A DNA stretch of 64,000 nucleotides from Frigoribacterium sp. Leaf8. Lineage in GTDB: Bacteria; Actinomycetota; Actinomycetes; Actinomycetales; Microbacteriaceae. A model generated the notes under the pieces. It ran no database searches, was not told where the DNA came from, and worked only from the letters and a program-made list of their open reading frames with translations. This document shows positions 420-62,815 of this stretch, in pieces. The translations under genes and the position numbers were made by a program. The stretch lies in NCBI RefSeq assembly GCF_001421165.1, contig NZ_LMKB01000006.1, positions 154,419 to 218,418 of the forward strand. The letters run 5' to 3'. Positions within the stretch are counted from its first letter, which is position 1, and each line of letters begins with the position of its first letter.

Positions 420-486
420 CGCGTCCTCCGACGGGCGCCGCGCCTCCTCCGTCCACGACCCCCGCACCGGCAGGCGGACCGACGAC

Positions 487-492
487 TAGCAT
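487..492 (+). promoter_or_regulatory. -10 element for a leaderless DUF4031 gene
   Basis: TAGCAT ends 7 nt before the GTG at 500, the spacing expected when transcription starts at or next to the start codon. It supports the GTG start over upstream in-frame ATGs that would add a low-complexity Pro-rich tail. Confidence 0.45.
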
Positions 493-499
493 CCAGGGC

Positions 500-775
500 G
501 TGATCCTGATCGACGAGGCCGTGTGGCCGGCCCACGACACGTTGTGGGCACACCTGGTGAGCGACGACTCGTACGACGAGTTGCACGCCTTCGCCGCCCG
601 TCACGGCATCCCCCGCCGCGGGTTCGACCACGACCACTACGACGTGCCCGAGTCCCGACGGGCGGAGTTGATCGCCGGTGGGGCCGTCGCCGTGACCGGC
701 CTCGACCTCGCCCGCCGTCTCGAACGCAGCGGGCTGCGGGTGTCCCAGCGGGTGAAACGCGGCCTCACGGCCTGA
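500..775 (+). CDS. DUF4031 domain-containing protein
   Basis: Small soluble protein of 91 residues matching, from memory, the actinobacterial DUF4031 family: start VILIDEAVWPAHDTLWAHL, a central FDHDHYDVPESRR and a basic tail. No biochemical function is known to me. I chose the GTG at 500 because the conserved sequence begins there and a TAGCAT -10 sits 7 nt upstream. An in-frame ATG at 341 would add 53 Pro/Arg-rich residues unlike the family. It is transcribed divergently from rplU, with no evident operon partner; the next gene converges from the right. Confidence 0.75.
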   Translation: MILIDEAVWPAHDTLWAHLVSDDSYDELHAFAARHGIPRRGFDHDHYDVPESRRAELIAGGAVAVTGLDLARRLERSGLRVSQRVKRGLTA

Positions 776-806
776 CCGGTTCCGTCCGCCCCGGCCGCAG
801 GCGCGG

Positions 807-2270
807 TCACCAACTCGTGTCGAAGCCCTCGTAACTGGCCACGACCGCGCCCGAGGCGATCTCGACGATGGTGGTCGTGACCCCGTCGGCCACGGGGTCG
901 ATCGTGTACGAGTAGTCGGTCGGCGTCGTCGCGTCCCCGACCGACTGGACCGCCAGGTACTGCCCGTTCGGGGAGACGTCGAAGCCCTCGATCACACCGG
1001 ACGCGCTCGGGGGTTGCCAGAGCGTCCGTGACGTGGCACCGTCGTCGGCGACGACGAGCGTCCGGTACGTGAGCCCGTCGTCGGACGGGACCGACACCTG
1101 CTGCACGACGTGGCCTGGGTCGAGGGCCACCAGCGGTCCGGCGAACGGGAGGACGCCGTCGACCGGGGCGGGGGCACGGGGGCGCTCGTCCCCCGTGGCG
1201 AGGTCGACGACCATGGAGGCGATCGCCGACGCGGCGATCAGCGTGGTGCCGTCGAGCGACACCCCCTGCAACAGCGAGTACGTCCCCACGGGCCGCACGG
1301 GGTCCACTCCCGAGAGGTCGATGACGCTCACCGAGTCGTCGACGGCCTGGACGACGACGTCGTCCTCACCCGGCACGAAGGCCCAGTCGGTGGGTTCGAC
1401 GGGCTGCCCGGACAGGCCGAGGACCGGGGCCACCGCCCGCTCCCCCTGCAGCGGCAGCGTGTACAACGTCTCGACGTCCGAACCGGTCGGACGGAACGAG
1501 AACGCCAGCGTGGTCGTGGCACGGTCGGCCGCGAAGCGGGTGATCAGGCCGGGGGCCTCGGGCACGGGCAGGGTCTCGACGGCGGCCCCGTCGAGCGACA
1601 CGAGGCTGAGGCTGCTCTGCGTCCCGTCGTCCGTCACGACCGCGACGGCCGAGTCGAACACCTCGTAGGCCTGGATGCGCGGCGCGGACCAGACGGTCGT
1701 CCTGTCCGAGCCCCGGAGCCCGGCCCGTTCGATGCGGTCGTCGGCCCCGGACGTGCCGCGCACGAGCCGGTACGCCGTCGCCGGGGGCGTGCTGAACCGC
1801 GCCTCCAGGGTCGAGGTCTGTCGCTGGTAGACGCTCGAGACCCCGTCGACGCGGACGTGGTAGTCGGTGTCGTACGCGAGCCGGCCGGTGAAGGTCACGG
1901 CGACCACGTCACCCGACGTCTGCACCGTGAAGGCGGCCGCGGGCGTCACGACCACCTGCGAGGCGTCGACGTGCGCGAGCGCCTGGTTGGCGAACACCCG
2001 CAGCTGCTGACCGGGACGCTCGACCACGGCCGTCGTGTCGACCTGCGTCTCGCCCGCCTTGGGGCCCTGGAAGTAGGTCAGGCCCACGAAGGCGGCACAG
2101 ACCACCGCGAGGACGGTGACGACGGCGACCCATCGCGTGCGCCAGCGGGCACCGGCCTCACGGGCGTCCTGCTCGGTGAGGAACACGGGGTCGGACGCGA
2201 ACGGATCGGGCGTGGCAGCCCCTCCCGTCGCGCCCCGGCCCCGTCCGCCCTCAGTAGAGGTACGGGTCAC
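807..2270 (-). CDS. Membrane-anchored protein with Ig-like and beta-propeller-like repeats
   Basis: 487 residues, unrecognised by name. A short cytoplasmic N-terminus is followed by one transmembrane helix (about 48-68, VAVVTVLAVVCAAFVGLTYF), so the bulk should lie outside the membrane. Residues about 95-170 resemble a bacterial Ig-like (Big_5/SbsA) domain. The rest is a succession of short strand repeats with DG, SP and NG turns, as in TolB/WD40-type propellers, including a terminal VSPNGQYLAV. It is the last gene of the 4986-807 operon and overlaps its upstream neighbour by 20 nt, so translational coupling is likely. A scaffold or sensor role with the permease pair is inference only. Confidence 0.6.
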   Translation of the reverse strand: MTRTSTEGGRGRGATGGAATPDPFASDPVFLTEQDAREAGARWRTRWVAVVTVLAVVCAAFVGLTYFQGPKAGETQVDTTAVVERPGQQLRVFANQALAHVDASQVVVTPAAAFTVQTSGDVVAVTFTGRLAYDTDYHVRVDGVSSVYQRQTSTLEARFSTPPATAYRLVRGTSGADDRIERAGLRGSDRTTVWSAPRIQAYEVFDSAVAVVTDDGTQSSLSLVSLDGAAVETLPVPEAPGLITRFAADRATTTLAFSFRPTGSDVETLYTLPLQGERAVAPVLGLSGQPVEPTDWAFVPGEDDVVVQAVDDSVSVIDLSGVDPVRPVGTYSLLQGVSLDGTTLIAASAIASMVVDLATGDERPRAPAPVDGVLPFAGPLVALDPGHVVQQVSVPSDDGLTYRTLVVADDGATSRTLWQPPSASGVIEGFDVSPNGQYLAVQSVGDATTPTDYSYTIDPVADGVTTTIVEIASGAVVASYEGFDTSW

Positions 2271-5004: not shown

Positions 5005-7917
5005 CTACAGATCGTCGGAGCTGACCCCCACGCCGAGGATGAACGGACCGGACTCGCCGGTCGTCGTCGGCTCGGCCGGAGCCGCTGCGGTCGTGCCCTG
5101 GCTGGAGGCGCGGCGCGAACGCGAACGCCCCTGCCCGGGCTGCTTCGGCTCGGGCAGCGCACCCAGCACCGAGTCGAGCAGCTGCTCGGCGTCCTGGCTG
5201 CTGATGCGACGCGGCTCGCGACGCGTGGTCGCGACGGGGATGTCGAGGATCGCGACCGTGGCGTCCGGGGTCGAGACCGTGGCCGACGACCGGCGACGCT
5301 CCGTGGCCTTGGCGACCGGCGCCTCCGTGGGCTCGTCGACGGGTGCGGCCACGGCGGCGGCCGGAGCCGACCGCTCGGCCGGGGCGGCCGCGGGGACCTC
5401 GATCACACCGGCGCTCGAGTCGGCGGGAGCGGACTCGGCGGGCGACGACTCGGCAGGAGCCGACTCGGCGGCGTCCTCGCCGGTCTCGCGCGCGGCACGT
5501 GACGATCCACGGCGGCCCTTGCGGCCCGAACGCCCGCGACGGCCTTCGTCCGCCTGGTCACCGGCTGCCTCGGCGGCCGGCTCGGCCTTCGTGGCACTCG
5601 CGGCGGCGGCGTCGATGGCGGCCTCGACCGCCGCGGCGGCCTGGCTGGCCGCGTCGCCGTCCTTGGTGCCGCCTTCTTCGGCATGGGCGATGGTGCTCGC
5701 CGCGATGCGCGAGAGGGCGTTCTTCACGTCGTCGGTGATGGCGTGCGTACCCGTCGTGGGGTGAGCCCCACCGGTCGGCGCCGAGGGGCCGCCGCGACCG
5801 GACTGCGGCGCGGTGCCGGCACCGGCGCCCGTGTTGTGGCCGTTGCCGCCCGACTTGCCGGACCCGCCGGCCTGGCCGCCACGTCGGCGGTCGCCCTGCT
5901 GGCCGCCCTTGCGGGGCTGCTGTTCTTGGACGCGCGCAGCGCTGCCGGCCTCGGAGAACGACTCGGCCAGGCCGAGGCCCAACTTCTTGCGCGTCATCTG
6001 GACGAGCCCGAGCGACGTGACCTCGGCCACCTGGTGCTTGGTGCGGTCGCGGCTGAGGCACTCGACCAGACGACGCAGCACGAGGTCACGGTTGGACTCG
6101 AGCACCATGTCGATGAAGTCGACGACGATGATGCCGCCGATGTCGCGGAGGCGCAGCTGACGGACGATCTCCTCGGCGGCCTCGAGGTTGTTCTTCGTGA
6201 CCGTCTCTTCGAGGTTTCCGCCGGAACCGACGAACTTGCCGGTGTTGACGTCGACGACGGTCATCGCCTCGGTGCGGTCGATGACGAGGGAACCGCCCGA
6301 GGGCAGCCAGACCTTGCGGTCGAGCGCCTTCTCGATCTGCTCGTTGAGGCGGTACTCGTCGAACGCGTCCTTGTCACCCTCATAGCGCTTGACGCGGTCC
6401 ATGAGGTCGGGCGCCACCGCCGAGAGGTACGACTGCAGCGTCTCGAACGCCTCGTCGCCGTCGATGACCATCTCGTGGAAGTCCTCGTTGAAGACGTCGC
6501 GCACGATCTTGATCAGCAGGTCGGGCTCGGAGTGCAGCTGGTTCGGGGCGTTGCCCGCCGCGACCTTCTTCTCGATGTCGGCCCACTGGTTGGTGAGGCG
6601 CTTGACGTCGAGGGTCAGCTGCTCTTCGGTCGCGCCCTCGGCCGCCGTGCGCACGATGACGCCGGTGTTCTCCGGCAGGGCCTCTTTGAGGATCTTCTTC
6701 AGACGCGCGCGCTCGGTGTCGGGCAGCTTGCGGCTGATGCCGTTCATCGAGCCGTTGGGCACGTAGACGAGGTAGCGGCCCGGCAGCGAGATCTGGCTCG
6801 TGAGACGAGCGCCCTTGTGGCCGACGGGGTCCTTGGTGACCTGGACGAGCACGCGGTCGCCGGGCTTGAGGGCCAGCTCGATGCGACGGGGCTGGTTGCC
6901 CGTCGACAGGGAGTCCCAGTCGACCTCGCCCGAGTAGAGCACGGCGTTGCGACCGCGTCCGATGTCGACGAAGGCGGCCTCCATGCTGGGCAGCACGTTC
7001 TGGACGCGGCCGAGGTAGACGTTGCCGATCAACGAGACGTTCTGCGCCTTGGCGACGTAGTGCTCGGCCAGGGTGCCGTCCTCCATGACGCCGATCTCGA
7101 TGCGGTCGCCCGACGAGCGGACGATCATCTTGCGGTCGACGCTCTCGCGACGGGCGAGGAACTCGGCCTCGGTGATGACGGTGCGACGGCGTCCGGCGTC
7201 CCGGCCGTCGCGACGACGCTGCTTCTTCGCCTCGAGACGCGTGGAGCCCTTGATGCGCTGCGGCTCGGTGATGAGCTCGGCCTGACGCGGGGCACGGTCG
7301 CGGTCGCGACCACGGGGCTCGGAGTCGCGCTCCTCGCGGTCCTGCGAGCGGCCGCGCTGGCGGCGACGCGAGGCGGGCTGCTGCTCGCGGTCGTCGCGCT
7401 CGTCACGGTCGTCGCGGTCGTCGTCGTCGCCCTCGCGGTCGTCGTCCCACGAGTCGTCGCGGTCGTACCGGTCGTCACGGTCGTCGCGCTGTCGTCGACC
7501 GGGGCGGGCCGGCAGGACGGTGATCTCGGGTGCGTGGAAGATCAACGACGTCGTCGTGAGGTTCGCCGGGATCGGCGACGCCCCGTCGGTCGTCGCGTCG
7601 TCGGCCGTCGCGGCCCCGGTCGGTGACGGCTGGGTCGCCGCAGCGACGAACGCCTCGGCGACGGCGTCGGTCTCGCTCTGCTGGGAGGTCGGGGCCTGGG
7701 CCGCGACCTGCTCGTCGGTGGTCTCGGTCTCGTGGGTCACGGGTGATGCCTCCTGGGCGTCGTCTGTCGTCCGGACGGGTGAAGGGAGTGCTGCCTGCTG
7801 CCTGGCGGGGGCCGTCGCCGGGGCGGCGTCGACCGCCGCCTGGCGAGCCCTGAGGCCTGCGAACAATCCCCTTCTCTTCTTCGGACGTCCGTCGTTGTCT
7901 GTGTTGTCGTTCACCAC
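5005..7917 (-). CDS. rne: Ribonuclease E/G
   Basis: Endoribonuclease for mRNA turnover and rRNA/tRNA processing. About 970 residues. A disordered N-terminal arm of about 250 residues contains a dense Asp/Arg stretch (DDRDDRYDRDD and similar). The S1 RNA-binding domain follows (IEIGVMEDGTLAEHYV..., about 270-360), then the catalytic core with both metal-site segments TVVDVNTGKF and IVVDFIDM, and a long Ala/Gly/Glu-rich tail. Odd: after MTRKKLG the usual Zn-link (CPxC-type) is absent and the chain passes straight into SEAGSAARVQEQQ. I chose the GTG at 7917, with GAGGAG 11 nt upstream; longer in-frame starts add Arg-rich non-family sequence. Confidence 0.93.
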   Translation of the reverse strand: MVNDNTDNDGRPKKRRGLFAGLRARQAAVDAAPATAPARQQAALPSPVRTTDDAQEASPVTHETETTDEQVAAQAPTSQQSETDAVAEAFVAAATQPSPTGAATADDATTDGASPIPANLTTTSLIFHAPEITVLPARPGRRQRDDRDDRYDRDDSWDDDREGDDDDRDDRDERDDREQQPASRRRQRGRSQDREERDSEPRGRDRDRAPRQAELITEPQRIKGSTRLEAKKQRRRDGRDAGRRRTVITEAEFLARRESVDRKMIVRSSGDRIEIGVMEDGTLAEHYVAKAQNVSLIGNVYLGRVQNVLPSMEAAFVDIGRGRNAVLYSGEVDWDSLSTGNQPRRIELALKPGDRVLVQVTKDPVGHKGARLTSQISLPGRYLVYVPNGSMNGISRKLPDTERARLKKILKEALPENTGVIVRTAAEGATEEQLTLDVKRLTNQWADIEKKVAAGNAPNQLHSEPDLLIKIVRDVFNEDFHEMVIDGDEAFETLQSYLSAVAPDLMDRVKRYEGDKDAFDEYRLNEQIEKALDRKVWLPSGGSLVIDRTEAMTVVDVNTGKFVGSGGNLEETVTKNNLEAAEEIVRQLRLRDIGGIIVVDFIDMVLESNRDLVLRRLVECLSRDRTKHQVAEVTSLGLVQMTRKKLGLGLAESFSEAGSAARVQEQQPRKGGQQGDRRRGGQAGGSGKSGGNGHNTGAGAGTAPQSGRGGPSAPTGGAHPTTGTHAITDDVKNALSRIAASTIAHAEEGGTKDGDAASQAAAAVEAAIDAAAASATKAEPAAEAAGDQADEGRRGRSGRKGRRGSSRAARETGEDAAESAPAESSPAESAPADSSAGVIEVPAAAPAERSAPAAAVAAPVDEPTEAPVAKATERRRSSATVSTPDATVAILDIPVATTRREPRRISSQDAEQLLDSVLGALPEPKQPGQGRSRSRRASSQGTTAAAPAEPTTTGESGPFILGVGVSSDDL

Positions 7918-8981: not shown

Positions 8982-9108
8982 GCCGCGCCTCCTCGCGTCC
9001 CCGGCTCGGGCCCACCCGCCCCGTCAGTCGCACTCAGGTCGCTCCCAGCCGAATCAGGGTCGGCCTCGCCAGTCTTGACCGACGACCCCCGAGCCACGAC
9101 GAGGACTG

Positions 9109-10052: not shown

Positions 10053-10097
10053 ACCGAGCCCGCGCCTCCTGATGGACTCAGGAGGCGCGGGCTCGGT
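10053..10097. terminator. Bidirectional terminator built from an inverted GGAGGCGCGG pair
   Basis: A perfect 18-bp stem (10053-10070 with 10080-10097) closes a 9-nt loop between the converging DsbA-like gene and ndk. Each arm contains one copy of the dispersed 10-mer (10060-10069 and 10081-10090). There is no T-run, as usual in high-GC actinobacteria. Confidence 0.8.
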
Positions 10098-12463: not shown

Positions 12464-15400
12464 GCGCGTCGTACCTCCACGACGACGGCCGAGCCGGAGC
12501 CCGATCCGACGACGGTCTTCTCGGGCCGCTCGCCGACGCCCTCCTGGACGTCGACGATCAGCTCGGTGGTCAGGGTCTCGCGGGAGATCAGCTCACGGTG
12601 GGCCTCGACGGCGGCCGCCGCGACGGCGTCGGTCGTGAGCGTCGTCACGATGCGGTCGGACACGTCGAGGTCGGCGGTCTTCCGGGCCTGCTGCACGGCA
12701 CGCACGACGTCGCGGGCCAGGCCCTCGGCCTCGAGCTCGGGCGTGGTCGCGGTGTCGAGCAGCACGAAGCCGCCGTCGCCGACGAAGGCGAGAGCGCTCG
12801 ACGCGTCGGCGACGGCCAGCTCGAGCGTGAACTCGCCGGGCAGCAACTCGACGCCGCCGACGACGACGTTCTCGCCCGCGGGCTGCCAGTCGCCCCTCTT
12901 CGCCGCCGGGATGACCTGTTGCACCTGCTTGCCGATGCGCGGACCGGCCGCCCGGGCGTTGACGGTGAGCTTGCGGGTGACGCCGTATTCTCCGAGGCTC
13001 TCCTCGGTCAGGCGGGTCACGACGACCTGCTTGACGTTGAGCTCGTCGCGCACGATGTCGGCGAACGCCTCGAGGCCCGCGGGGTCGGGCGTGACGACGG
13101 TCAGACGGGCCAACGGCAGGCGGACGCGCAGCCCCTGGGCCTTGCGCAGCGCCAGGCCGCTCGATGCGACCGCGCGAACGGCGTCCATCGCGGCCACGAG
13201 GGCGTCGTCGGCCGGGAACGCCGAGGCGTCGGGCCAGTCGGTCAGGTGCACCGAGCGACCCCCGGTGAGTCCCTTGTAGATCTCGTCCGCGACGAGGGGC
13301 GCGAGCGGGGCCGCGACCCGGGTGAGGGTCTCGAGCACCGTGAAGAGGGTGTCGAAGGCGTCGACGTCGTCGCCCGACCAGAACCGGTCACGCGAGCGTC
13401 GGACGTACCAGTTGGTCAGGACGTCGGCGAAGTCGCGCAGCGTCGCGGTGGCCCGCGGCGTGTCGAGGGCGTCGAGGGCCGCCTCGACGTCCGTGACCAG
13501 GAGGCGCGTCTTCGCCAGCAGGTAGCGGTCGAGGACGTCGCTCGAGTCGGTTCGCCACTGCGCGTCGTGACCGGGGGCGGCGTGACGACCCGCGCCTCCG
13601 GACGCCGCGTTGGCGTAGAGCGAGAAGAAGTACCAGGTGCTCCAGAGCGGCAGCAGGAACTGCCGGACGCCCTCGCGGATGCCCTCTTCGGTGACGACGA
13701 GGTTGCCGCCGCGGATCACCGAACTCGACATGAGGAACCAGCGCATGGCGTCGGCCCCGTCGCGGTCGAAGACCTCGCTGACGTCGGGGTAGTTGCGCAG
13801 GCTCTTCGACATCTTCTGACCGTCGGAGCCGAGCACGATGCCGTGGCTGACCACGTTCGAGAAGGCCGGGCGGTCGAACAACGCGGTGGAGAGCGTGTGC
13901 AGCGTGTAGAACCAGCCACGGGTCTGGCCGATGTACTCGACGATGAAGTCGGCAGGGCTGTGCTCGTCGAACCACTGCTGGTTCTCGAACGGGTAGTGCA
14001 CCTGTGCGAACGGCATCGAGCCGCTGTCGAACCAGACGTCGAGGACGTCCTCGATGCGGCGCATCGTGCTCTGCCCGGTCGGATCGTCGGGGTTCGGTCG
14101 GGTGAGCTCGTCGATGTAGGGGCGGTGCAGGTCGGGCTCGCCGTCGGCATTGAGCGGCAGGCGGCCGAAGTCGGCCTCCATCTCGGCCAGCGAGCCGTAG
14201 ACGTCGACGCGCGGGTAGGCGGGGTCGTCGCTCTTCCACACCGGGATCGGTGAACCCCAGTAGCGGTTGCGCGAGATCGACCAGTCGCGGGCGTTGCCGA
14301 CCCACTTGCCGAACTGGCCGTCCTTGACGTTGTCGGGCACCCAGGTGATCTGCTGGTTCAGCTCGCCCATGCGGTCGCGGAACTCGGTGACGCGCACGAA
14401 CCAGCTCGACACCGCCTTGTAGATCAGGGGGTTGCGGCAGCGCCAGCAGTGCGGGTAGCTGTGCTCGTAGCTGGCGAGGCGCACCAGGCGACCGTCGGCG
14501 CGGAGGCGCTGCACCAACGGCTTGTTGGCCTCGAAGACCTGGAGGCCGGCGACGCCCAGCTCGTCGAACATCGGCAGGAAGCGCCCACCGTCGTCGACCG
14601 AGACGATCACGGGGATGCCCGCGGCGGCGCAGACCAGCTGGTCGTCCTCGCCGTAGGCCGGGGCCTGGTGCACGATGCCGGTGCCCTCGCCGGTGGCGAC
14701 GTAGTCGGCGACCAGCACGCGCCAGGCGTTCTCGGTGCCCCAGGCCTCGGTGTCGGCGTAGACGTCCCAGATGCGGTCGTACTCGACGCCCTCGAGCTCG
14801 GCACCGGCGAAGGTCGCGGTGACGGCGGCCTGGGCGGACTCGGCGGACTCGTAGCCCAGGTCACGCGCGTAGGCGCCGAGCGTGTCGGCCGCGAGCAGGA
14901 ACACGCTGCCGGTCAACAGCTCTTGGTCGCCGGTGCGCTCGCCCGGCAGGAGGGCGTGGGGCACGGTGACGTAGTCGATGGCCGGTCCCACGGCCAGCGC
15001 CATGTTGGTCGGGAGGGTCCACGGGGTGGTCGTCCAGGCCAGCGCCTCGACGCCGGTCAGGCCGAGCGCCTCGGCCTTGGCGCCGACGAGGGGGAAGGCG
15101 ACGGTGACCGTCTGGTCCTGACGGTTCTTGTAGACGTCGTCGTCCATGCGCAGTTCGTGGTTGGACAAGGGGGTCTGGTCGTGCCAGCAGTAGGGCAGCA
15201 CACGGAAGCCCTCGTAGGCGAGTCCCTTGTCGTGCAGCTGCTTGAAGGCCCAGACGACGCTCTCCATGTAGTCGACGTCGAGGGTCTTGTAGTCGTGGTC
15301 GAAGTCGACCCAGCGCGCCTGGCGGGTGACGTACCGCTGCCATTCGTCGGTGTACTGCAGCACCGATCGGCGGGCGGCGGCGTTGAACACGTCGATGCCC

Positions 15401-17075: not shown

Positions 17076-18326
17076 TCAGCCCCGGGAGGCGCGGCGCCGC
17101 GTGACGAGGACGGTCGCCGCCCCGAGCCCCACGAGGACCATGCCGGCGAGACCCGCCCACGGAGTCGTCTCGGAGGAGCCCGTGTAGGCGAGGTCGGAGC
17201 GGTGCGCCACGGGGACGACCCGTGCGGGCATCGGCACGGACGGTCGAGCCGCGGGGGGCACGGCGACGGACACCACGGCCGGCTCGGACGGAGCGGCGAC
17301 GACGACCGGTGCGGCCAACGTGAAGTCGACGGTCACCGGTGCCGACAGCCGACTCCGCGAGGGCTGCTGGACTCCCCCCAGGCTCGGGTCGCCCGCGCCC
17401 GCGTACTGCTGGACCGTGGCACGCCACGAGCCGTACGGCAGGCCGTCGCCGATGGCCCACGTGCCGTCGGCACGCACGATCGGTGAGTCGTAGTCGCTGC
17501 CCCACCCGGTCTGCTCCGAGAGCGCCTCGTACGAGTAGTGCAGCCACGAGCCCGCTTGGCCGGTGCCCTCGAGCACGAACGAGCCGCCCCCCGGCCACGT
17601 GGTCGCGGGGGTTCGCAGCGTCTCCCCCTGCCGCGGCGACCCGATGGTGACGGCAGGAGAGGTCGGGACCTCCACCCGGAAGGACCGCGTCTCGGAACCG
17701 AGGACGAAACCGTCCGCGTTCGACACGACGACGGTCATCGACTGTTCGGGCGCTGCGTCCTGGGGCAGGTGCACGTACCGGACGGCCCGCGGACCGGCCA
17801 CGTCCGCTTCGCCCCGGACCGACTGTCCCGCGGAGTCGAACACCTCGTACGAGAACCGGGCATCGGGTGCCTCGATCACGAGCTCGTAGCCCAGGGTCGC
17901 GTAGACCGCACCGTCCAGGGGGCTCGCGACCGTGAACCGTGCCGCCGGTGCAGCAGCACCCTCGGCCGCACTGGGGGCCGCCGCGGACGGCTGCGCCGAC
18001 GGGGCCGTCGCGCCGTCGTCGGTCACCCCGGAGCCGTCCCCCGACTCGTCCGACGGGCCGGTCGTGGCGTCGGCCCCGGGCCCGACGGCGGGCGCGGCCG
18101 GCCCCGCCTCGTCGTCGATCTCGGGCGTCGGCGTCACCGCCGGCGCGTCCTCGACGTCCTCGAGCACGGCCGGGCCCCCGACCTCGGGCTCGACCTCGGA
18201 CGCCGTCGCCGTCCGATCCAGCGGCGCAGGCTCGGCAGAAGCCGCCTGTCCGTTCAGCGCGATGCCCCCCAGGGCGATGACGATGGCCGTCGACAGCACG
18301 GTGGCGGTCGACACGGTCTTCTTCAT
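17076..18326 (-). CDS. Secreted LAxTG cell-wall-anchored protein
   Basis: 416 residues. An N-terminal signal peptide (MKKTVSTATV..., cleaved near AASA-EP) is followed by an acidic Pro/Ala/Asp-rich low-complexity region (about 35-125), two or three Ig-like beta domains (about 130-330), a Pro/Val linker, and a sorting signal: LAYTG, a hydrophobic helix, then RRRASRG. LAxTG is the recognition motif of class E sortases in high-GC actinobacteria. No sortase gene is in the window. The ATG at 18326 is chosen because the signal peptide begins there and GAGGA precedes it. Function on the surface is unknown. Confidence 0.8.
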   Translation of the reverse strand: MKKTVSTATVLSTAIVIALGGIALNGQAASAEPAPLDRTATASEVEPEVGGPAVLEDVEDAPAVTPTPEIDDEAGPAAPAVGPGADATTGPSDESGDGSGVTDDGATAPSAQPSAAAPSAAEGAAAPAARFTVASPLDGAVYATLGYELVIEAPDARFSYEVFDSAGQSVRGEADVAGPRAVRYVHLPQDAAPEQSMTVVVSNADGFVLGSETRSFRVEVPTSPAVTIGSPRQGETLRTPATTWPGGGSFVLEGTGQAGSWLHYSYEALSEQTGWGSDYDSPIVRADGTWAIGDGLPYGSWRATVQQYAGAGDPSLGGVQQPSRSRLSAPVTVDFTLAAPVVVAAPSEPAVVSVAVPPAARPSVPMPARVVPVAHRSDLAYTGSSETTPWAGLAGMVLVGLGAATVLVTRRRASRG

Positions 18327-26686: not shown

Positions 26687-26860
26687 CGGGTGAGGCCTCC
26701 AGGTCGTCGGGCGGTGGCAGTCGACCCCAGCGTCGGCAAAAAACCCGTCGAGCCTAACAGAACCGCCATGTCAGTACCAGTGCAGGGCGTGCAGGCGTGC
26801 AGCCACCGCAGCGCGCAGGAGGCGCGGTGGCGGTCCACGAGGAGCCCTCGCGGGGGTGCG

Positions 26861-35719: not shown

Positions 35720-35773
35720 ACCGCGCCTCCCCGGCCCCGTCGGGGGCCCGTCCACGAGCCCGGGAGGCGCGGT
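35720..35773. repeat. Inverted pair of the dispersed GGAGGCGCGG motif
   Basis: ACCGCGCCTCCC (35720-35731) and GGGAGGCGCGGT (35762-35773) form a perfect 12-bp stem around 30 nt, between tig and clpP1 and just downstream of the tig terminator. Confidence 0.75.
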
Positions 35774-55210: not shown

Positions 55211-55242
55211 CCCGCGCCTCCTTGTGGAGAAGGAGGCGCGGG
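55211..55242. repeat. Inverted pair of the dispersed motif forming a hairpin
   Basis: Perfect 13-bp stem (55211-55223 with 55230-55242) around a 6-nt loop; each arm contains one full 10-mer. It lies between the 71-residue gene and ssb and may terminate the former. Confidence 0.8.
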
Positions 55243-55563: not shown

Positions 55564-56091
55564 CTACGAGGCGAGCACGTACTTCGCGTACGACTTGCGG
55601 ATCTTGGTGACCTTCGGCAGCGCGACGGCGGTGCAGTAGCCCTGGCCGGGGTTCTTGGCGAAGAAGTCCTGGTGGTGCTCCTCGGCGTCGTACCAGGTGG
55701 ACAGCGGCTCGATCGTCGTGACGACACCGCCGCCCCAGGCCTCGGAGGCGCGGTCACGGGCCGCCTGGAAGACCGCCTCCTGGTCGTGGTCGGCGGCGAA
55801 CATCGCCGAGCGGTACTGGGTGCCGACGTCGGCGCCCTGCCGGTTCAGCTGCCGCGGGTCGTGCAGGGTGAAGAAGACGTCGAGGACGACGTCGGCGGGG
55901 AGCTTCTCGGGGTCGAAGCCGACCGCGACGGCCTCGGCGTGACCCGTGCGGCCCGTGCACACGTCGTCGTAGCTCGGCCGCTCGGTGTCTCCGCCGGTGT
56001 AACCCGAGACCACCTCGGTGACGCCGTCGAGGGTGCGGTAGACCGCGTCGAGGCACCAGAAGCACCCACCGGCCAGAACGAACGTCGTCAT
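55564..56091 (-). CDS. msrA: Peptide methionine (S)-S-oxide reductase MsrA
   Basis: Repairs methionine-S-sulfoxide in proteins using thioredoxin. 175 residues. Catalytic GGCFWC (about 8-13) and the conserved GYTGG and HDPRQLNRQGADVGTQYRS segments. A C-terminal Cys in GYCTAVALPK is present. I chose the ATG at 56091: the family motif begins 7 residues later and TAGGTT lies 7 nt upstream. A longer in-frame start exists but is non-family. Divergent from the aldo-keto reductase with 47 bp between starts. Confidence 0.94.
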   Translation of the reverse strand: MTTFVLAGGCFWCLDAVYRTLDGVTEVVSGYTGGDTERPSYDDVCTGRTGHAEAVAVGFDPEKLPADVVLDVFFTLHDPRQLNRQGADVGTQYRSAMFAADHDQEAVFQAARDRASEAWGGGVVTTIEPLSTWYDAEEHHQDFFAKNPGQGYCTAVALPKVTKIRKSYAKYVLAS

Positions 56092-56138: not shown

Positions 56139-57158
56139 ATGAGATCACCTTTCACGCCCTACGTCGCCGACGACGCACGGTACTCACGACTGGACTACGT
56201 CCGTACCGGCCGCAGCGGACTCCGGCTGCCCCGCATCTCCCTCGGCTTCTGGAACAACTTCGGCTCGGACCGGAGCCTCGAGACGCAGCGCGACATCGTG
56301 CTGCGCGCGTTCGACCGGGGGGTCACCCACTTCGACCTGGCGAACAACTACGGCCCGCCCTACGGCTCGGCCGAAGAGCAGTTCGGTCGCATCGCCGCGG
56401 CGAACCTGCGCCCCTACCGCGACGAGATCGTGGTCTCGTCGAAGGCGGGCTACGACATGACCCCCGGACCGTACGGCGACGGGGGGTCGCGCAAGTACCT
56501 GCTCAACTCGCTCGAGGCCAGCCTCGGGCGGCTCGGCATGGACCACGTCGACATCTTCTACTCGCACCGCCCCGACCCCGAGACCCCGATCGACGAGACG
56601 ATGGGGGCGCTCGCGACGGCCGTCCGGCAGGGCAAGGCGCTCTACGCCGGCATCTCCAACTACGACCCGGCGCAGACCGAGGCCGCGATCGACGCCCTGG
56701 CCGCCGAGGGCGTGCCCCTGCTGATCCACCAGCCGCGGTACAACATGTTCGACCGCCGGCCCGAGCGAGGGCTCTTCGACACCCTCCTGACCCGCGGCGT
56801 CGGTTCGATCGTGTTCTCGCCCCTGGCCGGGGGCCTCCTGACGAACCGCTACCTCTCGGGCAGTGCTCCCGCGGGTTCGCGCGCGGCCGAGGGCCGGTGG
56901 TTCTCCGAGGACGCCCTCGACGAGACCTACCTCTCCCGCGTCCGCGGCCTGAACGAGATCGCGGAGGCGCGGGGCCAGTCGCTCGCGCAGCTCTCGCTCA
57001 CCTGGGTGCTGCGCCAACCCGCCGTGACCAGCGCCCTCATCGGCGCCTCGTCGGTGGCCCAGCTTGACGACAGCCTCGACGCACTCGACGGTGCCGAGCT
57101 GACCGAGGACGAGCTCGCGGCGATCGAGCCGCTGGCGGTCGACGGCACCGGCCGCTGA
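56139..57158 (+). CDS. Aldo-keto reductase (YghZ/MgrA-like)
   Basis: 339 residues, TIM-barrel NADPH-dependent oxidoreductase. Catalytic Asp and Tyr in THFDLANNYGPPYGSAEEQFG (about 62-82), Lys in VVSSKAG, His in IFYSHRPD. The YRPY-like DEIVVSSKAGYDMTPGPYGDGGSRKYL region is typical of the L-glyceraldehyde-3-phosphate reductase (YghZ) branch, which also detoxifies methylglyoxal. Leaderless TAGGCT promoter. A hairpin terminator and 9-bp minisatellite follow. Confidence 0.9.
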   Translation: MRSPFTPYVADDARYSRLDYVRTGRSGLRLPRISLGFWNNFGSDRSLETQRDIVLRAFDRGVTHFDLANNYGPPYGSAEEQFGRIAAANLRPYRDEIVVSSKAGYDMTPGPYGDGGSRKYLLNSLEASLGRLGMDHVDIFYSHRPDPETPIDETMGALATAVRQGKALYAGISNYDPAQTEAAIDALAAEGVPLLIHQPRYNMFDRRPERGLFDTLLTRGVGSIVFSPLAGGLLTNRYLSGSAPAGSRAAEGRWFSEDALDETYLSRVRGLNEIAEARGQSLAQLSLTWVLRQPAVTSALIGASSVAQLDDSLDALDGAELTEDELAAIEPLAVDGTGR

Positions 57159-58881: not shown

Positions 58882-58927
58882 GTTTCGTGCACCGCGCCCC
58901 GACTAGTCGCGGTGCGGTGCACGAAAC
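58882..58927 (-). terminator. Hairpin between glycosyltransferase gene and tRNA-Arg
   Basis: Perfect 14-bp arms (58882-58895 with 58914-58927) with further pairing possible inside. It follows the 58992-61115 gene by 65 nt and probably terminates it. Confidence 0.65.
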
Positions 58928-58991
58928 GCGGTGTCTCGCGCGCCCCGGAGGTGCGGGGCGGCCGGGCGGACCGGTGGCGACGTCCGGTCGG

Positions 58992-61115
58992 TCAGCTGGT
59001 CAGGTCGTACAGCGTGACCCCGTCGACCTCGGTCGAGGAGAAGTTCGCCTCGACCCAGGCCGCGATCTCGCTCGAGGAGGAGCTGCCGCCGTTCGACTGC
59101 CCGACGGTACCTCCGACGAACCAGTGGATCTGCCCGTCGGCGACGTACTGCTCGAACTGCGCGAGGGTCGGTGACGGGTCGCTGCCGTTGAACCCCCCGA
59201 CCGCCATGACCGGGTCGCCCGTCGCGAGCTGGTAGCCCGCCGCGCTGTTCGACCCGACGGCCGCGGCGACCCAGGTGTACCGGTCCGCGTCCGCGCCGAC
59301 CACGGCAGCGAGCTCGTCGCTGACCGAGCCCGAGCCGAGCAGCGAGCCGGCTCCGCCCCCGCCACCGGGGAGTCCGCGCGTGGCCGTACCCGCGCCTCCT
59401 GCGGTTCCGGCCCCGGTGCCGGTGCCGGTGCCGGTGCCCGCTCCCCCGCCGGTGCCGCCCGGCAGCTGCGGGGGCGTTCCGCCAGCCGCGCCACCGGGCC
59501 CGCCACCAACGGCCCCGCCGCGACCGCCGAAGCCGCCGGCGCCGGCGCCGCCCGCGCCACCACCGCCGAACCCGCCCGTGCCACCCGACACGGTCGGCCC
59601 GGCCGTGACGATCGAACCGGTGTGGGCCGTCGACACGGTCTCGACCGAGTAGGCCGCCGGAGCCAGCAGGCCGCCCGTGAGCAGCACGGCGAGGGTCGCC
59701 GCCGTGAGCGCCCGGCCCCGTCGCGGCAGCAGCACGAGCACGGCGCCCACGACGGCGAGCGCGACGACGACGTACCGGAGCCACGGCTGCCAGGACTCCG
59801 CCCGTCCGAGCAGCACCCAGGCCCAGACGCCCGTGAGCAGAGCCGACGCCGCCAGCACGATCCGCACCCACGACCGGGCCCGTCGTCGCCACAACACGTC
59901 GGCCGCAGCCCCGAGGGTGACCGCGATGGCCGGGGCGAGCGCCACCGTGTAGTACGCGTGGAAGATGCCCGACATGAAGCTGAAGACGAGGGCGGTCAGC
60001 ACCGTCCAGCCCCCGAACAGCAGCAGGGTCGCCCGACGGGCCGAGGTCCGGTGTCGCCAGCCGAGCAACACGAGTGCCGAGACGCCGATCACGAGGGCGG
60101 CGGGAAGCAACCAGGTGATCTGGCCCCCGAACTCGCCCGTGAAGAGCCGGGTGATGCCGGTCTCGCCCCACATGCCTGTCGTGGCGGCACCGGTGCCGCC
60201 GCCCCCGCCCGTCACGCTGCCGGTCTCGTCACCCGTGAGCCGTCCGAGGCCGTTGTAGCCGAAGGTCAACTCGAGGAACGAGTTGGTCTGCGAGCCGCCG
60301 ACGTACGGCCGCATGCCCGCGGGCACCAGCTCGACGAGGGCGACCCACCAGCCGGCCGACACCACGACCGCACCGAGCGCGGCCAGCAGGTGCAGCAGCC
60401 GCTTGCGCAGCAGGACGGGCGCCGCGACGAGGTACACCCCGGCCAGTACGGGCAGGATGACGAACGCCTGCAGTTGTTTGGTCAGGAAGCCGAAGCCGAT
60501 CGCCACGCCCGCCCAGACGACCCAACGGACGCGGCCCGTCTCGACGCCGCGCAGCGTCAGGTACGTGGCGAGGGTCAGCAGCAGCACGAGCAGCGCGTCG
60601 GGGTTGTTGAAGCGGAACATCAACGCGGCGACCGGGGTCAGCGCGAGGACTCCACCGGCGACGAACGCGGCGACGCCCGAGAAGTGCCGCCGCACCGTGG
60701 CCCAGACGAGTCCGACGGTCGCGACGCCCATCAGTGCCTCGGGCAGCAGGATGCTGAACGACGACAGTCCGAACACCCGGACCGACAACGCCATGACCCA
60801 CAGGCTCGCGGGCGGCTTGTCGACCGTGATCGAGTTCGCGGCGTCGGACGAGCCGTAGAGGAACGCCTCCCAGTTCTGCGAACCGGCCTGCACCGCGGCC
60901 GAGTAGAACGAGTTCGCCCAGCCGTTCGCCGACAGGTTCACCAGGTAGAGAGCCCCCGTGGCGACCAGCAGCGCGAGGAACGCCGGTCGCTCCCACCGTG
61001 CCGCGTCCTCACGCCCGCGCACCAGGCGACGAGCGAGCGGACGGAGGCGCGGGCCGGCCGACCCGGACGGCGAGCGTCGATCGGTCAGCGGCACCGGCGT
61101 CGTCCCGGCGCTCAT
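58992..61115 (-). CDS. YkcB-like membrane glycosyltransferase (ArnT/PMT family)
   Basis: 707 residues. About 11 membrane helices (about 45-500), with the extracytoplasmic KPPASLWVMAL motif after helix one and the catalytic Asp region expected of GT-C enzymes. C-terminal part: a Gly-rich stretch (about 510-580, GGFGGGG... and GTGTGTGTG), then a globular domain of about 130 residues ending in EVDGVTLYDLTS, as in YkcB. It likely transfers a sugar from a polyprenyl carrier to an envelope acceptor. Start overlaps the GT2-GtrA stop by 4 nt (ATGA). Confidence 0.85.
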   Translation of the reverse strand: MSAGTTPVPLTDRRSPSGSAGPRLRPLARRLVRGREDAARWERPAFLALLVATGALYLVNLSANGWANSFYSAAVQAGSQNWEAFLYGSSDAANSITVDKPPASLWVMALSVRVFGLSSFSILLPEALMGVATVGLVWATVRRHFSGVAAFVAGGVLALTPVAALMFRFNNPDALLVLLLTLATYLTLRGVETGRVRWVVWAGVAIGFGFLTKQLQAFVILPVLAGVYLVAAPVLLRKRLLHLLAALGAVVVSAGWWVALVELVPAGMRPYVGGSQTNSFLELTFGYNGLGRLTGDETGSVTGGGGGTGAATTGMWGETGITRLFTGEFGGQITWLLPAALVIGVSALVLLGWRHRTSARRATLLLFGGWTVLTALVFSFMSGIFHAYYTVALAPAIAVTLGAAADVLWRRRARSWVRIVLAASALLTGVWAWVLLGRAESWQPWLRYVVVALAVVGAVLVLLPRRGRALTAATLAVLLTGGLLAPAAYSVETVSTAHTGSIVTAGPTVSGGTGGFGGGGAGGAGAGGFGGRGGAVGGGPGGAAGGTPPQLPGGTGGGAGTGTGTGTGAGTAGGAGTATRGLPGGGGGAGSLLGSGSVSDELAAVVGADADRYTWVAAAVGSNSAAGYQLATGDPVMAVGGFNGSDPSPTLAQFEQYVADGQIHWFVGGTVGQSNGGSSSSSEIAAWVEANFSSTEVDGVTLYDLTS

Positions 61116-62410
61116 CGACCGACCACCGTGACGTCGTCGTCGCCGGCCACGGCGGCGACGCGGGTGGCGAGGTCGGACACGGGGTCGGCGACACCGACCC
61201 GCTCGTCGGCCGGTCCCGGCGTCACGTGCGTCGCCTCCGACCGGAACACCCAGGCGCGCAGGAGCACGAAGCGCAGGACGGTCGCGACGAGGTTCGCGGC
61301 CGTCAAGACCAGCAGCTCGGCCTGCGCGTCGGCCGCGGGAGCCGCGGCGTGCAGCACGACGAGCGACCCCGAGGTCAGCGCCCAGGCGAGGACGAAGACC
61401 ATCAGCCCTTGCAGTTGGTGTCGCGCCACGCCCGACGCCCCCCGCACCCCGAACGTGAACCGCCGGTTGGCGGCCGTGTTGACCACGGCCGTGACGAGCA
61501 ACGACACGGAATTCGCCGCCTGGGCCGGCATCACCTGCTGCGCGCCGAGGTAGAGCAGCGCGTACGCGGCGGTCGAGGCGACCCCGACGACGCCGAACCG
61601 CACGACCTGCGAGAAGAACGTCGGAGGCGCGGGCGGCTCGAACGGACGCCTCCCGATCGCGTCGTACACCGCCTGGACCGGGATCGCGCCCCGGGCGATG
61701 CCCGTGCCCACGCGCAGCATCCCCTTGAGGTCGGCGGCGGCCGTGGAGACGATGTCGACCGAGCTGTCGGGGTCGTCGACCCAGTCGACCGGCACCTCGT
61801 GGATGCGCAGGCCCGAGCGCTCGGCGAGGATCAGCAGTTCGGTGTCGAAGAACCACCCGGTGTCCTCGACGAGGGGCAGCAGTCGCTCGGCGGCCTCGCG
61901 CCGGATCGCCTTGAAGCCGCACTGGGCGTCGCTGAACCCGACCCCCATCGTGCGACGCAGCAGGAAGTTGTAGCTGCGCGAGACGAATTCCCGCGTGCCG
62001 CCGCGCACGACCCGCGACGACCGGCTCAGCCGGGTGCCGATCGCGAGGTCGGAGTGGCCGGAGAGCAACGGTGCGACGAGCGGGCCGAGCGCAGAGAGGT
62101 CGGTGGAGAGGTCTTCGTCGAGGTAGACCAGCACGTCGGCGGGCGAGGCCGCCCAGACCTGCTTGAGGGCACGGCCTCGGCCCTTCTCGGCGAGGTGGAC
62201 GGCGGTCACGCACCGCAGGCGTCGGGCGAGGTCGTCGGCGAGGGCCGGCGTGCCGTCGGTGCTGGCGTTGTCGGCCACGGTGATGCGCCAGGTCTCGGTG
62301 ACGTGGCGGGTCAGATGGTCATGGAGGCTCGTGATGCTGGCCTCGAGGGTGGCAGCCTCGTCGAAGACGGGCACCACGATGTCGAGACGCAGGATGTCGG
62401 TGTCAGGCAT
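61112..62410 (-). CDS. GT2 glycosyltransferase fused to GtrA domain (YkcC-like)
   Basis: 432 residues. N-terminal GT-A domain (about 1-235) with DIVVPVFDEAATL and the DLYLDEDLSTD-type DxD (here LVYLDEDLST) nucleotide-sugar site: a polyprenyl-phosphate glycosyltransferase of the DPM/YkcC kind. C-terminal four-helix GtrA domain (about 260-385), including NRRFTFG and VLLRAWVFR. It makes and perhaps flips the donor used by the YkcB-like partner encoded next (ATGA overlap). ATG at 62410 chosen; an in-frame GTG at 62431 would add 7 residues. Confidence 0.88.
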   Translation of the reverse strand: MPDTDILRLDIVVPVFDEAATLEASITSLHDHLTRHVTETWRITVADNASTDGTPALADDLARRLRCVTAVHLAEKGRGRALKQVWAASPADVLVYLDEDLSTDLSALGPLVAPLLSGHSDLAIGTRLSRSSRVVRGGTREFVSRSYNFLLRRTMGVGFSDAQCGFKAIRREAAERLLPLVEDTGWFFDTELLILAERSGLRIHEVPVDWVDDPDSSVDIVSTAAADLKGMLRVGTGIARGAIPVQAVYDAIGRRPFEPPAPPTFFSQVVRFGVVGVASTAAYALLYLGAQQVMPAQAANSVSLLVTAVVNTAANRRFTFGVRGASGVARHQLQGLMVFVLAWALTSGSLVVLHAAAPAADAQAELLVLTAANLVATVLRFVLLRAWVFRSEATHVTPGPADERVGVADPVSDLATRVAAVAGDDDVTVVGR

Positions 62411-62507
62411 GGGACCACGATCGGTCGCCACGCCATCAGCGGCCTCGCATCAGTCGATGGCGACGCCGCGGAGATCCTATGAGCCTCCCATGACGGGGGT
62501 CCCGCGA

Positions 62508-62768
62508 TCAGATCGCGAGGGACAGGGCCCCGAGCAGGCGGTCCAACGTCGGCACGCCCGGTGAGCGGAAGACCACCTCGCCGTCGTCCCGCGTGACCAC
62601 GATGGTGGGCGTGCTGCGGACGTCGCGCCGTTCGGCGTCGGCGGGCCGGGCGGCGACGTCGGCCTCGTCGACGACGAGCGAGGGCACGAGGCCTTTCGCC
62701 TCGGCGACGACCGCCCTGGCCGCGTGGCAGGGACCGCAGAAGGCCGACGTGTAGAGCTCGAGCATCAT
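62508..62768 (-). CDS. Thioredoxin/glutaredoxin-like protein
   Basis: 86 residues, single thioredoxin fold. Active site SAFCGPCHAAR (CGPC, about 9-15) right after the first strand, and STPTIVV with the cis-Pro (about 52-58). Small cytosolic thiol reductase, resembling actinobacterial glutaredoxin/NrdH-like proteins; redox partner unknown. Two adjacent ATGs at the start; either is possible. The motif hairpin 62782-62815 lies 14 nt upstream. Confidence 0.82.
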   Translation of the reverse strand: MMLELYTSAFCGPCHAARAVVAEAKGLVPSLVVDEADVAARPADAERRDVRSTPTIVVTRDDGEVVFRSPGVPTLDRLLGALSLAI

Positions 62769-62781
62769 GCCGGGGACAACG

Positions 62782-62815
62782 AGGAGGCGCGGGGGAATCT
62801 TCCCCCGCGCCTCCT
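62782..62815. terminator. Hairpin terminator built from an inverted GGAGGCGCGG pair
   Basis: Perfect 16-bp stem (62782-62797 with 62800-62815), each arm containing one 10-mer (62783-62792 and 62805-62814). It follows the 62853-63137 gene. Confidence 0.8.

What the first reader, a model, noticed from the sequence alone, without database searches (positions are those of the whole stretch)
438..62814. Dispersed 10-mer GGAGGCGCGG looks like a DNA-uptake-sequence-type repeat in an actinobacterium
By hand count the exact 10-mer or its complement occurs about 30 times, at 438, 1797, 5104, 8983, 10060, 10081, 13590, 17085, 21306, 22497, 23396, 26224, 26818, 27040, 29611, 35721, 35763, 39912, 40241, 42132, 43041, 55212, 55232, 55744, 56963, 59390, 61043, 61623, 62783 and 62805. 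About 11 more 9-mer matches differ only at the last base. Base composition (about 70% GC) predicts fewer than 2. The two orientations are near balanced (13 and 17). Coding copies fall in several frames (RAS, EEAR, GGAG and others), so selection acts on DNA, not protein. Eleven of 30 lie between genes although genes fill most of the window. Neisseriaceae and Pasteurellaceae uptake sequences behave this way; I know of no such report for Actinobacteria. Alternatives: binding site for a nucleoid protein, a methylation or protection site, or a self-copying repeat.
Basis: partly seen in the sequence, partly recalled or inferred. Interest (0 to 1): 0.88.

Follow-up and report, generated by a model that had tools for sequence, protein, structure and literature searches.

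The report
DNA-uptake-style tag in an actinobacterium
The chromosome of this bacterium (Frigoribacterium) carries one short DNA word about once every two kilobases, in the pattern that some naturally transformable Gram-negative bacteria use to tag their own DNA for uptake; if that is its job here, it would be a self-recognition tag in a Gram-positive lineage, for which our searches found no report.

Summary
Genome-wide there are 1578 copies (787+/791-; reversed-word control 68). All 16 Frigoribacterium genomes carry 842-1725. Curtobacterium, its sister in a trigger-factor tree, has fewer copies, many in a dialect (CTGGAGGCGCGG). Most other sampled Microbacteriaceae are near control level. Coding copies, in all six frames, exceed a protein-preserving codon shuffle 9-fold. 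In one 20-kb region followed through 15 relatives their wobble bases are conserved (0.92 against 0.79). Copies are densest between genes, paired ones can fold into hairpins, and low-GC stretches and two Curtobacterium plasmid segments are poor in them. No REP transposase was found. These are signatures of a DNA uptake sequence. ComEC is in all 20 genomes searched; 13 of 16 Frigoribacterium have pilC. Against the simplest version: three related genomes without pilC keep 1415-1562 copies, with wobble conservation where compared, so a Neisseria-style pilus is probably not the only keeper; a Tad-like system with ComEA/ComEC is the next candidate. Uptake itself is untested. Chi-like or HIP1-like roles remain possible.

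The parts
438..447 (-). motif copy, intergenic
1797..1806 (-). motif copy, coding (gene 807-2186 -)
5104..5113 (+). motif copy, coding antisense (Rne/Rng-family gene 5005-7740 -)
8983..8992 (-). motif copy, intergenic
10060..10090 (.). inverted pair of motif copies (10060 -, 10081 +) between convergent genes; predicted RNA hairpin -49.5 kcal/mol, z -10.25
13590..13599 (-). motif copy, coding (class I tRNA synthetase gene 12460-15753 -)
17085..17094 (+). motif copy, coding antisense (gene 17076-18326 -)
21306..21315 (-). motif copy, coding antisense (gene 19867-21504 +)
22497..22506 (-). motif copy, coding antisense (gene 22456-23352 +)
23396..23405 (-). motif copy, coding antisense (gene 23349-25079 +)
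26224..26233 (-). motif copy, coding (MFS/sugar transporter 25151-26686 -)
26818..26827 (+). motif copy, intergenic before the valS-type gene; identical in 4 of 7 aligned relatives
27040..27049 (-). motif copy in the valS-type gene (antisense); identical in 9 of 11 aligned relatives
29611..29620 (+). motif copy, coding (29584-29841 +); identical in 12 of 14 aligned relatives
35721..35772 (.). inverted pair of motif copies (35721 -, 35763 +) downstream of tig; predicted hairpin -52.7 kcal/mol, z -2.35; identical in 4 and 6 of 15 relatives
39912..39921 (-). motif copy, coding (sensor-kinase-like gene 39309-40817 -); identical in 15 of 15 relatives
40241..40250 (-). motif copy, same gene; identical in only 4 of 15 relatives
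42132..42141 (+). motif copy, coding antisense (amidohydrolase 41571-43079 -); identical in 7 of 12 aligned relatives
43041..43050 (-). motif copy, coding (41571-43079 -); identical in 7 of 12 aligned relatives
55212..55241 (.). inverted pair of motif copies (55212 -, 55232 +), intergenic; predicted hairpin -43.9 kcal/mol, z -7.04
55744..55753 (+). motif copy, coding antisense (55564-56091 -)
56963..56972 (+). motif copy, coding (aldo/keto-reductase-like gene 56139-57158 +)
59390..59399 (-). motif copy, coding (PMT-family gene 58992-61022 -)
61043..61052 (+). motif copy, intergenic
61623..61632 (+). motif copy, coding antisense (glycosyltransferase family 2, 61112-62410 -)
62783..62814 (.). 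inverted pair of motif copies (62783 +, 62805 -), intergenic; predicted hairpin -41.0 kcal/mol, z -6.71

Best explanation
The word is the core of a DNA-uptake-sequence-type self tag. Shown: AGGAGGCGCGG (nearly invariant core GGAGGCGC, graded flanks) is dispersed about once per 2.1 kb in the own genome and abundant in all 16 Frigoribacterium genomes; in the 20-kb region followed through relatives it stays at orthologous places with its synonymous bases conserved; Curtobacterium has a second dialect (CTGGAGGCGCGG); low-GC DNA and two plasmid segments are poor in it. Inferred: a surface DNA receptor on a type IV filament (the type IV pilus where present, or a Tad/Flp filament as in Micrococcus luteus) binds the tag; tagged DNA is handed to ComEA/ComEC, enters as a single strand and recombines with the chromosome. 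Preferential uptake of tagged alleles then spreads and repairs the tag wherever coding constraint allows, and the tag disfavours foreign DNA. Tags that lie in inverted pairs after genes may also act as terminator hairpins.
For: Density and strand balance; presence in 16 of 16 genomes of the genus; near control level in most other genera of the family, and at most 29 copies of the 11-mer in each of 247 other genomes of the order against 1106; dialect in Curtobacterium-type and named Curtobacterium DNA, sister in the trigger-factor tree at 99/95; coding copies in all six frames, 139 against 14.8; bias to gene ends, as reported for Pasteurellaceae uptake sequences (PMC2346458, abstract); wobble identity 0.919 in the motif against 0.792 elsewhere, and coding sites wholly identical in 54 of 79 comparisons against a mean of 0.424 for other coding 10-mers; intergenic density 5.6-fold higher than coding, highest between convergent genes, with inverted hairpin pairs, as in Neisseriaceae (PMC3630211, passages); O/E 4.4 in low-GC windows against 41-54 in typical DNA, and 1 copy in 100 kb of two Curtobacterium plasmids against 1.0 expected; ComEC in 20 of 20 genomes searched, ComEA-like genes beside it in the two Frigoribacterium loci looked at; a type IV pilus locus in the own genome.
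Against: No uptake or transformation data exist here, and no receptor was identified. The pilus is not specific to motif-bearing genera (PilC in 45 of 80 family genomes, 43 of 77 genera). Three related Frigoribacterium genomes gave no hit for PilC or N_methyl pilins, yet keep 1415-1562 copies, and G006/G014 conserve motif wobble bases (0.937 and 0.878 against 0.765). At 8 places where a relative has the word and the window aligns ungapped without it, the window differs by 2-4 bases, never by 1, and single-mismatch forms of the core are not in excess overall (transitions 42 against 29.3 expected, transversions 82 against 115.7); both need efficient restoration or another explanation. GC content and nativeness are partly confounded in the low-GC comparison. 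Inverted order is only moderately favoured among close neighbours (21 of 30).
Confidence: 0.6

Rival explanations
1. A HIP1-like highly iterated word: a chromosomal landmark bound or methylated by a lineage-specific protein (nucleoid organisation, repair or modification), with no role in uptake.
For: Lineage-specific, strand-balanced, spread over the genome, and kept in genomes without pilC. HIP1 of cyanobacteria is an abundant word linked to orphan methyltransferases (PMC4390886, start of abstract in the listings).
Against: The word is asymmetric, not palindromic like HIP1. It is scarce in low-GC DNA and plasmid segments, has a dialect in the sister genus and hairpin pairs after genes, which fit uptake sequences better. 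Methyltransferases and DNA-binding proteins were not searched for.
Confidence: 0.2
2. A Chi-like signal for the RecBCD/AddAB/AdnAB-type end-processing enzyme that promotes recombination.
For: The G-rich 8-base core is of Chi size (recalled); core-chromosome preference would be expected.
Against: No clear orientation bias with local GC skew: 90 copies in one sense, 74 in the other over 20 samples of G005, against the strong leading-strand bias recalled for E. coli Chi; an excess of 40- to 50-fold and inverted hairpin pairs are not Chi traits (recalled). The recombination enzyme of this genus was not examined.
Confidence: 0.1
3. A self-copying short repeat (REP/BIME-like) or a terminator family that spread by insertion.
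For: Intergenic palindromic pairs exist, and in the Curtobacterium-type genome G109 some are near-identical over about 45 bases. Of 112 copies in the relatives 16 are unaligned with the window and 5 have a gap inside, and in places where only the relative has the word the window differs by 2-4 bases.
Against: The REP-associated transposase family Y1_Tnp was found in 0 of 20 genomes searched, 13 of them Frigoribacterium. 139 of 238 copies are coding, in six frames. 91 of 112 copies in relatives align ungapped to the window, 68 of them to an identical copy.
Confidence: 0.05
4. A compositional or codon-usage artefact, or selection on Shine-Dalgarno-like AGGAGG.
For: AGGAGGCGCGG contains AGGAGG and the coding copies use common GC-rich codons.
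Against: 139 against 3.3 under codon-pair Markov and 14.8 under synonymous shuffle; antisense copies are as common as sense ones (77 and 62); most other genera of the family are near control level.
Confidence: 0.01

Closest known systems
DNA uptake sequences (DUS) of Neisseriaceae, bound by the minor pilin ComP
   Same: About 10-12 bases, hundreds to thousands of copies, dialects that share a core between related genera, inverted pairs at terminators, common intragenic copies in permissive parts of the core genome (PMC3630211 and PMC5031613, passages).
   Different: Unrelated sequence; a Gram-positive actinobacterium; no receptor identified (none was searched for beyond pilin domains); three related genomes without pilC keep the word. 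Uptake not shown.
Uptake signal sequences (USS) of Pasteurellaceae
   Same: Abundance, both strands, bias of both orientations to gene ends, one orientation more frequent in reading frames (PMC2346458, abstract; here 238 antisense and 191 sense).
   Different: Unrelated sequence and phylum; function not shown here.
HIP1 of cyanobacteria
   Same: Extreme over-representation of one short word in a lineage.
   Different: HIP1 is a palindrome linked to methyltransferases (PMC4390886, start of abstract); this word is asymmetric, has a dialect and forms hairpins in pairs.
Tad/Flp-dependent natural transformation of Micrococcus luteus
   Same: Actinobacterium with ComEA/ComEC and tad loci, a combination reported as frequent in actinobacteria (PMC4322843, passages). 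ComEC and a T2SSE-family ATPase apart from the pil locus occur in all 16 Frigoribacterium.
   Different: The term 'uptake sequence' does not occur in that paper. The Tad identity of the ATPase here is inferred by elimination, not tested with a Tad-specific model.

Membership tests
DNA uptake sequence (DUS/USS type) | Extreme over-representation of one short word across the chromosome | tested here: met
   1578 copies against 68 for the reversed word; 208 in 400 kb against 5.2 by Markov order 4
DNA uptake sequence (DUS/USS type) | Both orientations about equally common | tested here: met
   787 and 791; all 16 genomes of the genus near balance
DNA uptake sequence (DUS/USS type) | Copies within genes in several frames, enriched beyond protein and codon needs | tested here: met
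   139 coding copies in six frames (one frame with a single copy), synonymous shuffle 14.8
DNA uptake sequence (DUS/USS type) | Inverted pairs able to form terminator-like hairpins after genes | tested here: met
   21 of 30 neighbours closer than 60 bp are inverted, 9 direct; 4 of 4 window pairs fold, z -2.35 to -10.25. No U-tract: the terminator scan of 54-64 kb called neither of the two pairs there
DNA uptake sequence (DUS/USS type) | Related species share the word or a dialect of it | tested here: met
   16 of 16 Frigoribacterium; CTGGAGGCGCGG 37 times in 240 kb of G109, 20 times in 203 kb of 10 named Curtobacterium loci, 0 in 85 kb of 4 named Frigoribacterium loci and 0 in 1.31 Mb of 66 loci of other genera; sister genera in one gene tree
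DNA uptake sequence (DUS/USS type) | Scarce in recently acquired and extrachromosomal DNA | tested here: met
   O/E 4.4 in windows of GC < 0.67 against 41-54; 1 copy in 100 kb of two Curtobacterium plasmids against 1.0 expected. The chromosomes of those two strains were not counted; GC confounds in part; 'acquired' rests on composition
DNA uptake sequence (DUS/USS type) | Bearer has competence machinery | tested here: met
   ComEC 20 of 20, ComEA-like gene in the two Frigoribacterium loci looked at, filament ATPases 20 of 20; competence itself unknown
DNA uptake sequence (DUS/USS type) | Word-specific receptor on a type IV filament (ComP-like) | tested here: inconclusive
   Pilin genes in the own genome, but 3 of 16 genomes lack pilC and keep the word; no receptor identified
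DNA uptake sequence (DUS/USS type) | DNA with the word is taken up or transforms better | not testable with these tools
   Needs transformation assays
REP/RAYT repeats | REP-associated Y1 transposase in the genome | tested here: not met
   PF01797: 0 of 20 genomes
Chi site | Orientation bias to the leading strand | tested here: inconclusive
   90 against 74 in 20 samples of G005, judged by local GC skew, a weak proxy

The most novel reading that the evidence does not exclude
A third, independent origin of sequence-tagged DNA uptake, and the first in a Gram-positive lineage: Frigoribacterium and Curtobacterium recognise their own DNA by two dialects of one tag, through a filament other than, or in addition to, the type IV pilus (Tad/Flp with ComEA/ComEC), so that the pilus can be lost while the tag is kept.
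Probability: 0.45. Interest if true: 0.92.

Novelty: new variant of a known kind. Interest (0 to 1): 0.84.

Why it matters
A review read in passages (PMC5031613) names two families, Pasteurellaceae and Neisseriaceae, as having evolved sequence-specific uptake, by convergence. A third origin in an actinobacterium would show that self-tagging of DNA arises repeatedly, would offer a system with a different envelope in which to find the receptor and the reason for tags, and would predict frequent homologous recombination in these genera. The clade without pilC and the two dialects are natural experiments. If the word proves not to be an uptake tag, it is still an extreme, conserved, unexplained genome-wide word.

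Tried and rejected
A REP origin was tested by Y1_Tnp and disfavoured. A dialect in G065 (399 copies) was sought and none was clear. Pfam and PHROGs on 10 low-GC proteins each gave hits for 2 of 10 in each search, among them a ribonucleotide reductase, so not all low-GC DNA is foreign; 'acquired' rests on composition. A plasmid search with a motif-free 12-kb contig found only short IS30 matches in two Curtobacterium plasmids, which led to the plasmid counts (the first 50 kb of each of two plasmids of 148 and 143 kb). A trigger-factor search in plasmids gave nothing useful. Motif decay in pairs without and with pilC: wobble mismatches in the motif 4 of 63 and 9 of 74 (G006/G014, both directions) and 3 of 22 (G006 and G014 to G002), against 2 of 124 over seven pilC-bearing comparisons; this hints at relaxed upkeep without the pilus, but the comparisons are not independent, the pilC-bearing ones all come from the trigger-factor region, and intact sites do not differ clearly (35 of 53 against 33 of 46; 42 and 48 further sites were not covered by an alignment and were dropped), so I draw no conclusion. 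Paper search for the letters: 37 papers, 20 listed, none of those listed about such a repeat by title and start of abstract.

Full report
Observation. The window holds exactly 30 copies of GGAGGCGCGG at the places listed, 13 on + and 17 on -. Dinucleotide shuffles give 1.82 on average and at most 5 in 100 shuffles; Markov models of order 3, 4 and 5 give 0.70, 0.66 and 2.38. It is the most frequent 10-mer of the window. In the whole genome (12 contigs, 3.33 Mb) there are 787 forward and 791 reverse copies against 39 and 29 of the word read backwards, one per 2.1 kb.

The motif itself. In 464 kb of own sequence (400 kb of contig C1 plus the window) there are 238 exact 10-mers, 446 copies of GGAGGCGC and 172 of AGGAGGCGCGG. 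The eight bases GGAGGCGC vary little; A before them (0.72) and GG after them are preferred but replaceable, and weak preferences extend a few bases further. Single-mismatch forms of the core are not in excess overall: transitions 42 against 29.3 expected, transversions 82 against 115.7.

Where it lies. With a simple codon-usage gene finder of my own, 139 copies are coding, 98 intergenic and 1 at an edge: 0.337 per kb against 1.895 per kb. Intergenic density is highest between convergent genes (2.74 per kb), then tandem (2.01), then divergent (1.05); in tandem gaps the median distance after the upstream stop is 47 nt. Coding copies fall in antisense frames 51, 15 and 11 and sense frames 35, 26 and 1, so no one peptide explains them. 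Keeping every protein and every gene's codon usage, shuffles yield 14.8 +- 3.5; codon-pair Markov simulation yields 3.3. In a larger Frigoribacterium set, which includes orthologous regions and so is not independent, both orientations lean to the two ends of genes (quintiles 45-29-41-32-44 sense and 67-37-40-38-56 antisense), as reported for Pasteurellaceae uptake sequences (PMC2346458, abstract read). Thirty neighbouring copies are closer than 60 bp; 21 are inverted and 9 direct, and 8 of the 15 pairs of order +- have a step of exactly 27 bp. The four inverted pairs of the window fold into hairpins of -41 to -53 kcal/mol, one of them weakly against shuffles (z -2.35); the terminator scan of 54-64 kb called neither of the two pairs there, so terminator function is plausible but not shown.

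Taxonomic spread. All 16 genomes of the genus carry 842 to 1725 copies. Four named Frigoribacterium genomes have 842, 903, 1378 and 1421 copies, the very counts of four genomes of the own genus. Among 299 family genomes in 78 genera only the own genus (8 of them) is strongly enriched; genus g29 has 79 to 688 copies (7 genomes, reversed control 61 to 118); one genome of g51 (G065) has 399 (control 142); outside these the highest count is 217 with a control of 183. Six named Curtobacterium genomes have 128 to 716 copies with controls 25 to 92; a Clavibacter genome has 101 against 180 and a Rathayibacter genome 208 against 202. That g29 is Curtobacterium is an inference. In the order, the 11-mer AGGAGGCGCGG has 1106 copies in the own genome and at most 29 in each of 247 others drawn; that draw held no other genome of g1 and none of g29. 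In 240 kb of the g29 genome G109 the most over-represented 10-mers are TGGAGGCGCG and CTGGAGGCGC, and CTGGAGGCGCGG occurs 37 times against 0.4 expected; of its 50 10-mers 36 are intergenic and 14 coding, and 8 of the 14 coding ones follow GGCC (by eye). In 10 named Curtobacterium loci (203 kb) 20 of 44 copies of the 10-mer are CTGGAGGCGCGG and 9 are AGGAGGCGCGG; in 4 named Frigoribacterium loci (85 kb) 0 and 16 of 29; in 66 loci of other genera (1.31 Mb) 0 and 3 of 15. The dialects are therefore preferences, not absolutes. A trigger-factor tree of 31 rows (30 of the 80 loci plus the window) joins Frigoribacterium and Curtobacterium with 99/95 support.

Evolution of single sites. Fifteen Frigoribacterium orthologues of window 26.6-46.5 kb (one only 12 kb long; 82.7-99.4% identical to one another) were compared. 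The region holds 9 window copies, 6 of them coding. Coding copies are wholly identical in 54 of 79 comparisons against a mean of 0.424 for other coding 10-mers; third codon positions inside the motif are 0.919 identical to the window, against 0.792 in other coding DNA and 0.770 near the motif, while first and second positions near the motif are less conserved than elsewhere. One site (40241) is kept in only 4 of 15. So the word sits in tolerant parts of proteins and its synonymous bases are mostly held. Of 112 copies in the relatives 91 align ungapped with the window (68 with an identical copy, 23 at 8 places where the window differs by 2 to 4 bases), 5 have a gap inside and 16 are unaligned. 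Y1_Tnp is absent in 20 of 20 genomes searched, 13 of them Frigoribacterium. Together these argue against a self-copying repeat, without excluding that some intergenic pairs arose by insertion.

Low-GC and plasmid DNA. In 3-kb windows of own and same-species sequence, O/E is 4.4 below 0.67 GC (4 copies, 45 windows), 28.9 at 0.67-0.70 (49, 64 windows), 40.7 at 0.70-0.73 (173, 124 windows) and 53.6 above (195, 87 windows). The same-species genome G005 (3,712,462 bases) is 0.38 Mb larger than the own genome but has only 12 more copies. The first 50 kb of two Curtobacterium plasmids hold 0 and 1 copies against 0.55 and 0.45 expected; the chromosomes of those two strains were not counted. Low-GC proteins mostly match no Pfam or PHROGs family, but one is a ribonucleotide reductase, so these stretches are called atypical, not proven foreign.

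Machinery. The own genome has a type IV pilus locus on contig C1, about 314.6-327.8 kb: PilO and PilM domains, a prepilin peptidase, pilins with the N_methyl motif, PilC (T2SSF), a PilT-family ATPase and a PilB-like ATPase that scores below NCBIfam's PilB cut-off. PilC and both ATPases are found in 13 of 16 genomes of the genus. PilC is found in 45 of 80 family genomes, so the pilus does not by itself predict the word. ComEC is present in 20 of 20 genomes searched, including all 16 Frigoribacterium, with a ComEA-like gene (HHH and SLBB domains) beside it in the two Frigoribacterium loci that I looked at, one of them in G014. One more strong T2SSE-family ATPase, Tad-like by elimination, is present in all 16. 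In Micrococcus luteus, also an actinobacterium, transformation depends on Flp pili and two tad loci, and ComEA/ComEC with tad is said to be frequent in actinobacteria (PMC4322843, passages read).

The result against the simplest model. G002, G006 and G014 lack PilC and N_methyl pilins, are each other's nearest kin at 88-89% identity in the trigger-factor region, and still have 1415, 1421 and 1562 copies. Between G006 and G014 the motif wobble positions are 0.937 and 0.878 identical in the two directions against 0.765 in the background. If the pilus was lost once in their ancestor (parsimony, not shown), the word has been maintained without it. Upkeep may be weaker than in pilC-bearing pairs (see Tried and rejected), but the data are too few. 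I therefore prefer uptake through a Tad/Flp-like filament with ComEA/ComEC, or a replaceable role of the type IV pilus.

Judgement. Uptake tag: 0.6. A HIP1-like landmark of unknown function: 0.2. Chi-like: 0.1; orientation relative to local GC skew is nearly balanced (90 against 74). Searches of open-access papers gave no report of such a word in Frigoribacterium or Curtobacterium: 'Frigoribacterium' with 'DNA uptake' 0 papers, 'Curtobacterium' with 'uptake sequence' 0 papers; broader searches listed none about it among the rows shown. A review read in passages names Neisseriaceae and Pasteurellaceae as families with sequence-specific uptake (PMC5031613). Subscription papers and preprints were not searchable.

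Noticed in passing
G065 (genus g51), whole genome: 399 copies of the 10-mer against 108-161 in five other g51 genomes, without a clear dialect word; perhaps an older or decaying relative of the motif.
   Followed up: partly
L023, L039, L041, L042, L046, L048 (genome G109): Near-identical intergenic palindromes of about 45 bases built from two inverted motif copies, several around a TGCCAGCTGGCA centre; could be terminators or a spreading palindrome.
   Followed up: partly
G002, G006, G014: A Frigoribacterium clade without hits for pilC and N_methyl pilins, while 13 of 16 genomes of the genus have pilC.
   Followed up: partly
L017:4017-6053 (own C1:325460 and 325493): Two motif copies 33 bases apart lie inside the PilT-family ATPase gene itself.
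   Followed up: no
L161:5721-6602: A low-GC, motif-free stretch of the own genome encodes a protein with a CAP12/Pycsar-type TIR domain, a likely anti-phage effector.
   Followed up: no
G005:C1, 20 samples of 20 kb: Motif counts per 20 kb range from 0 to 18, lowest in the samples at 2.22 and 2.41 Mb; a regional pattern not explained.
   Followed up: no
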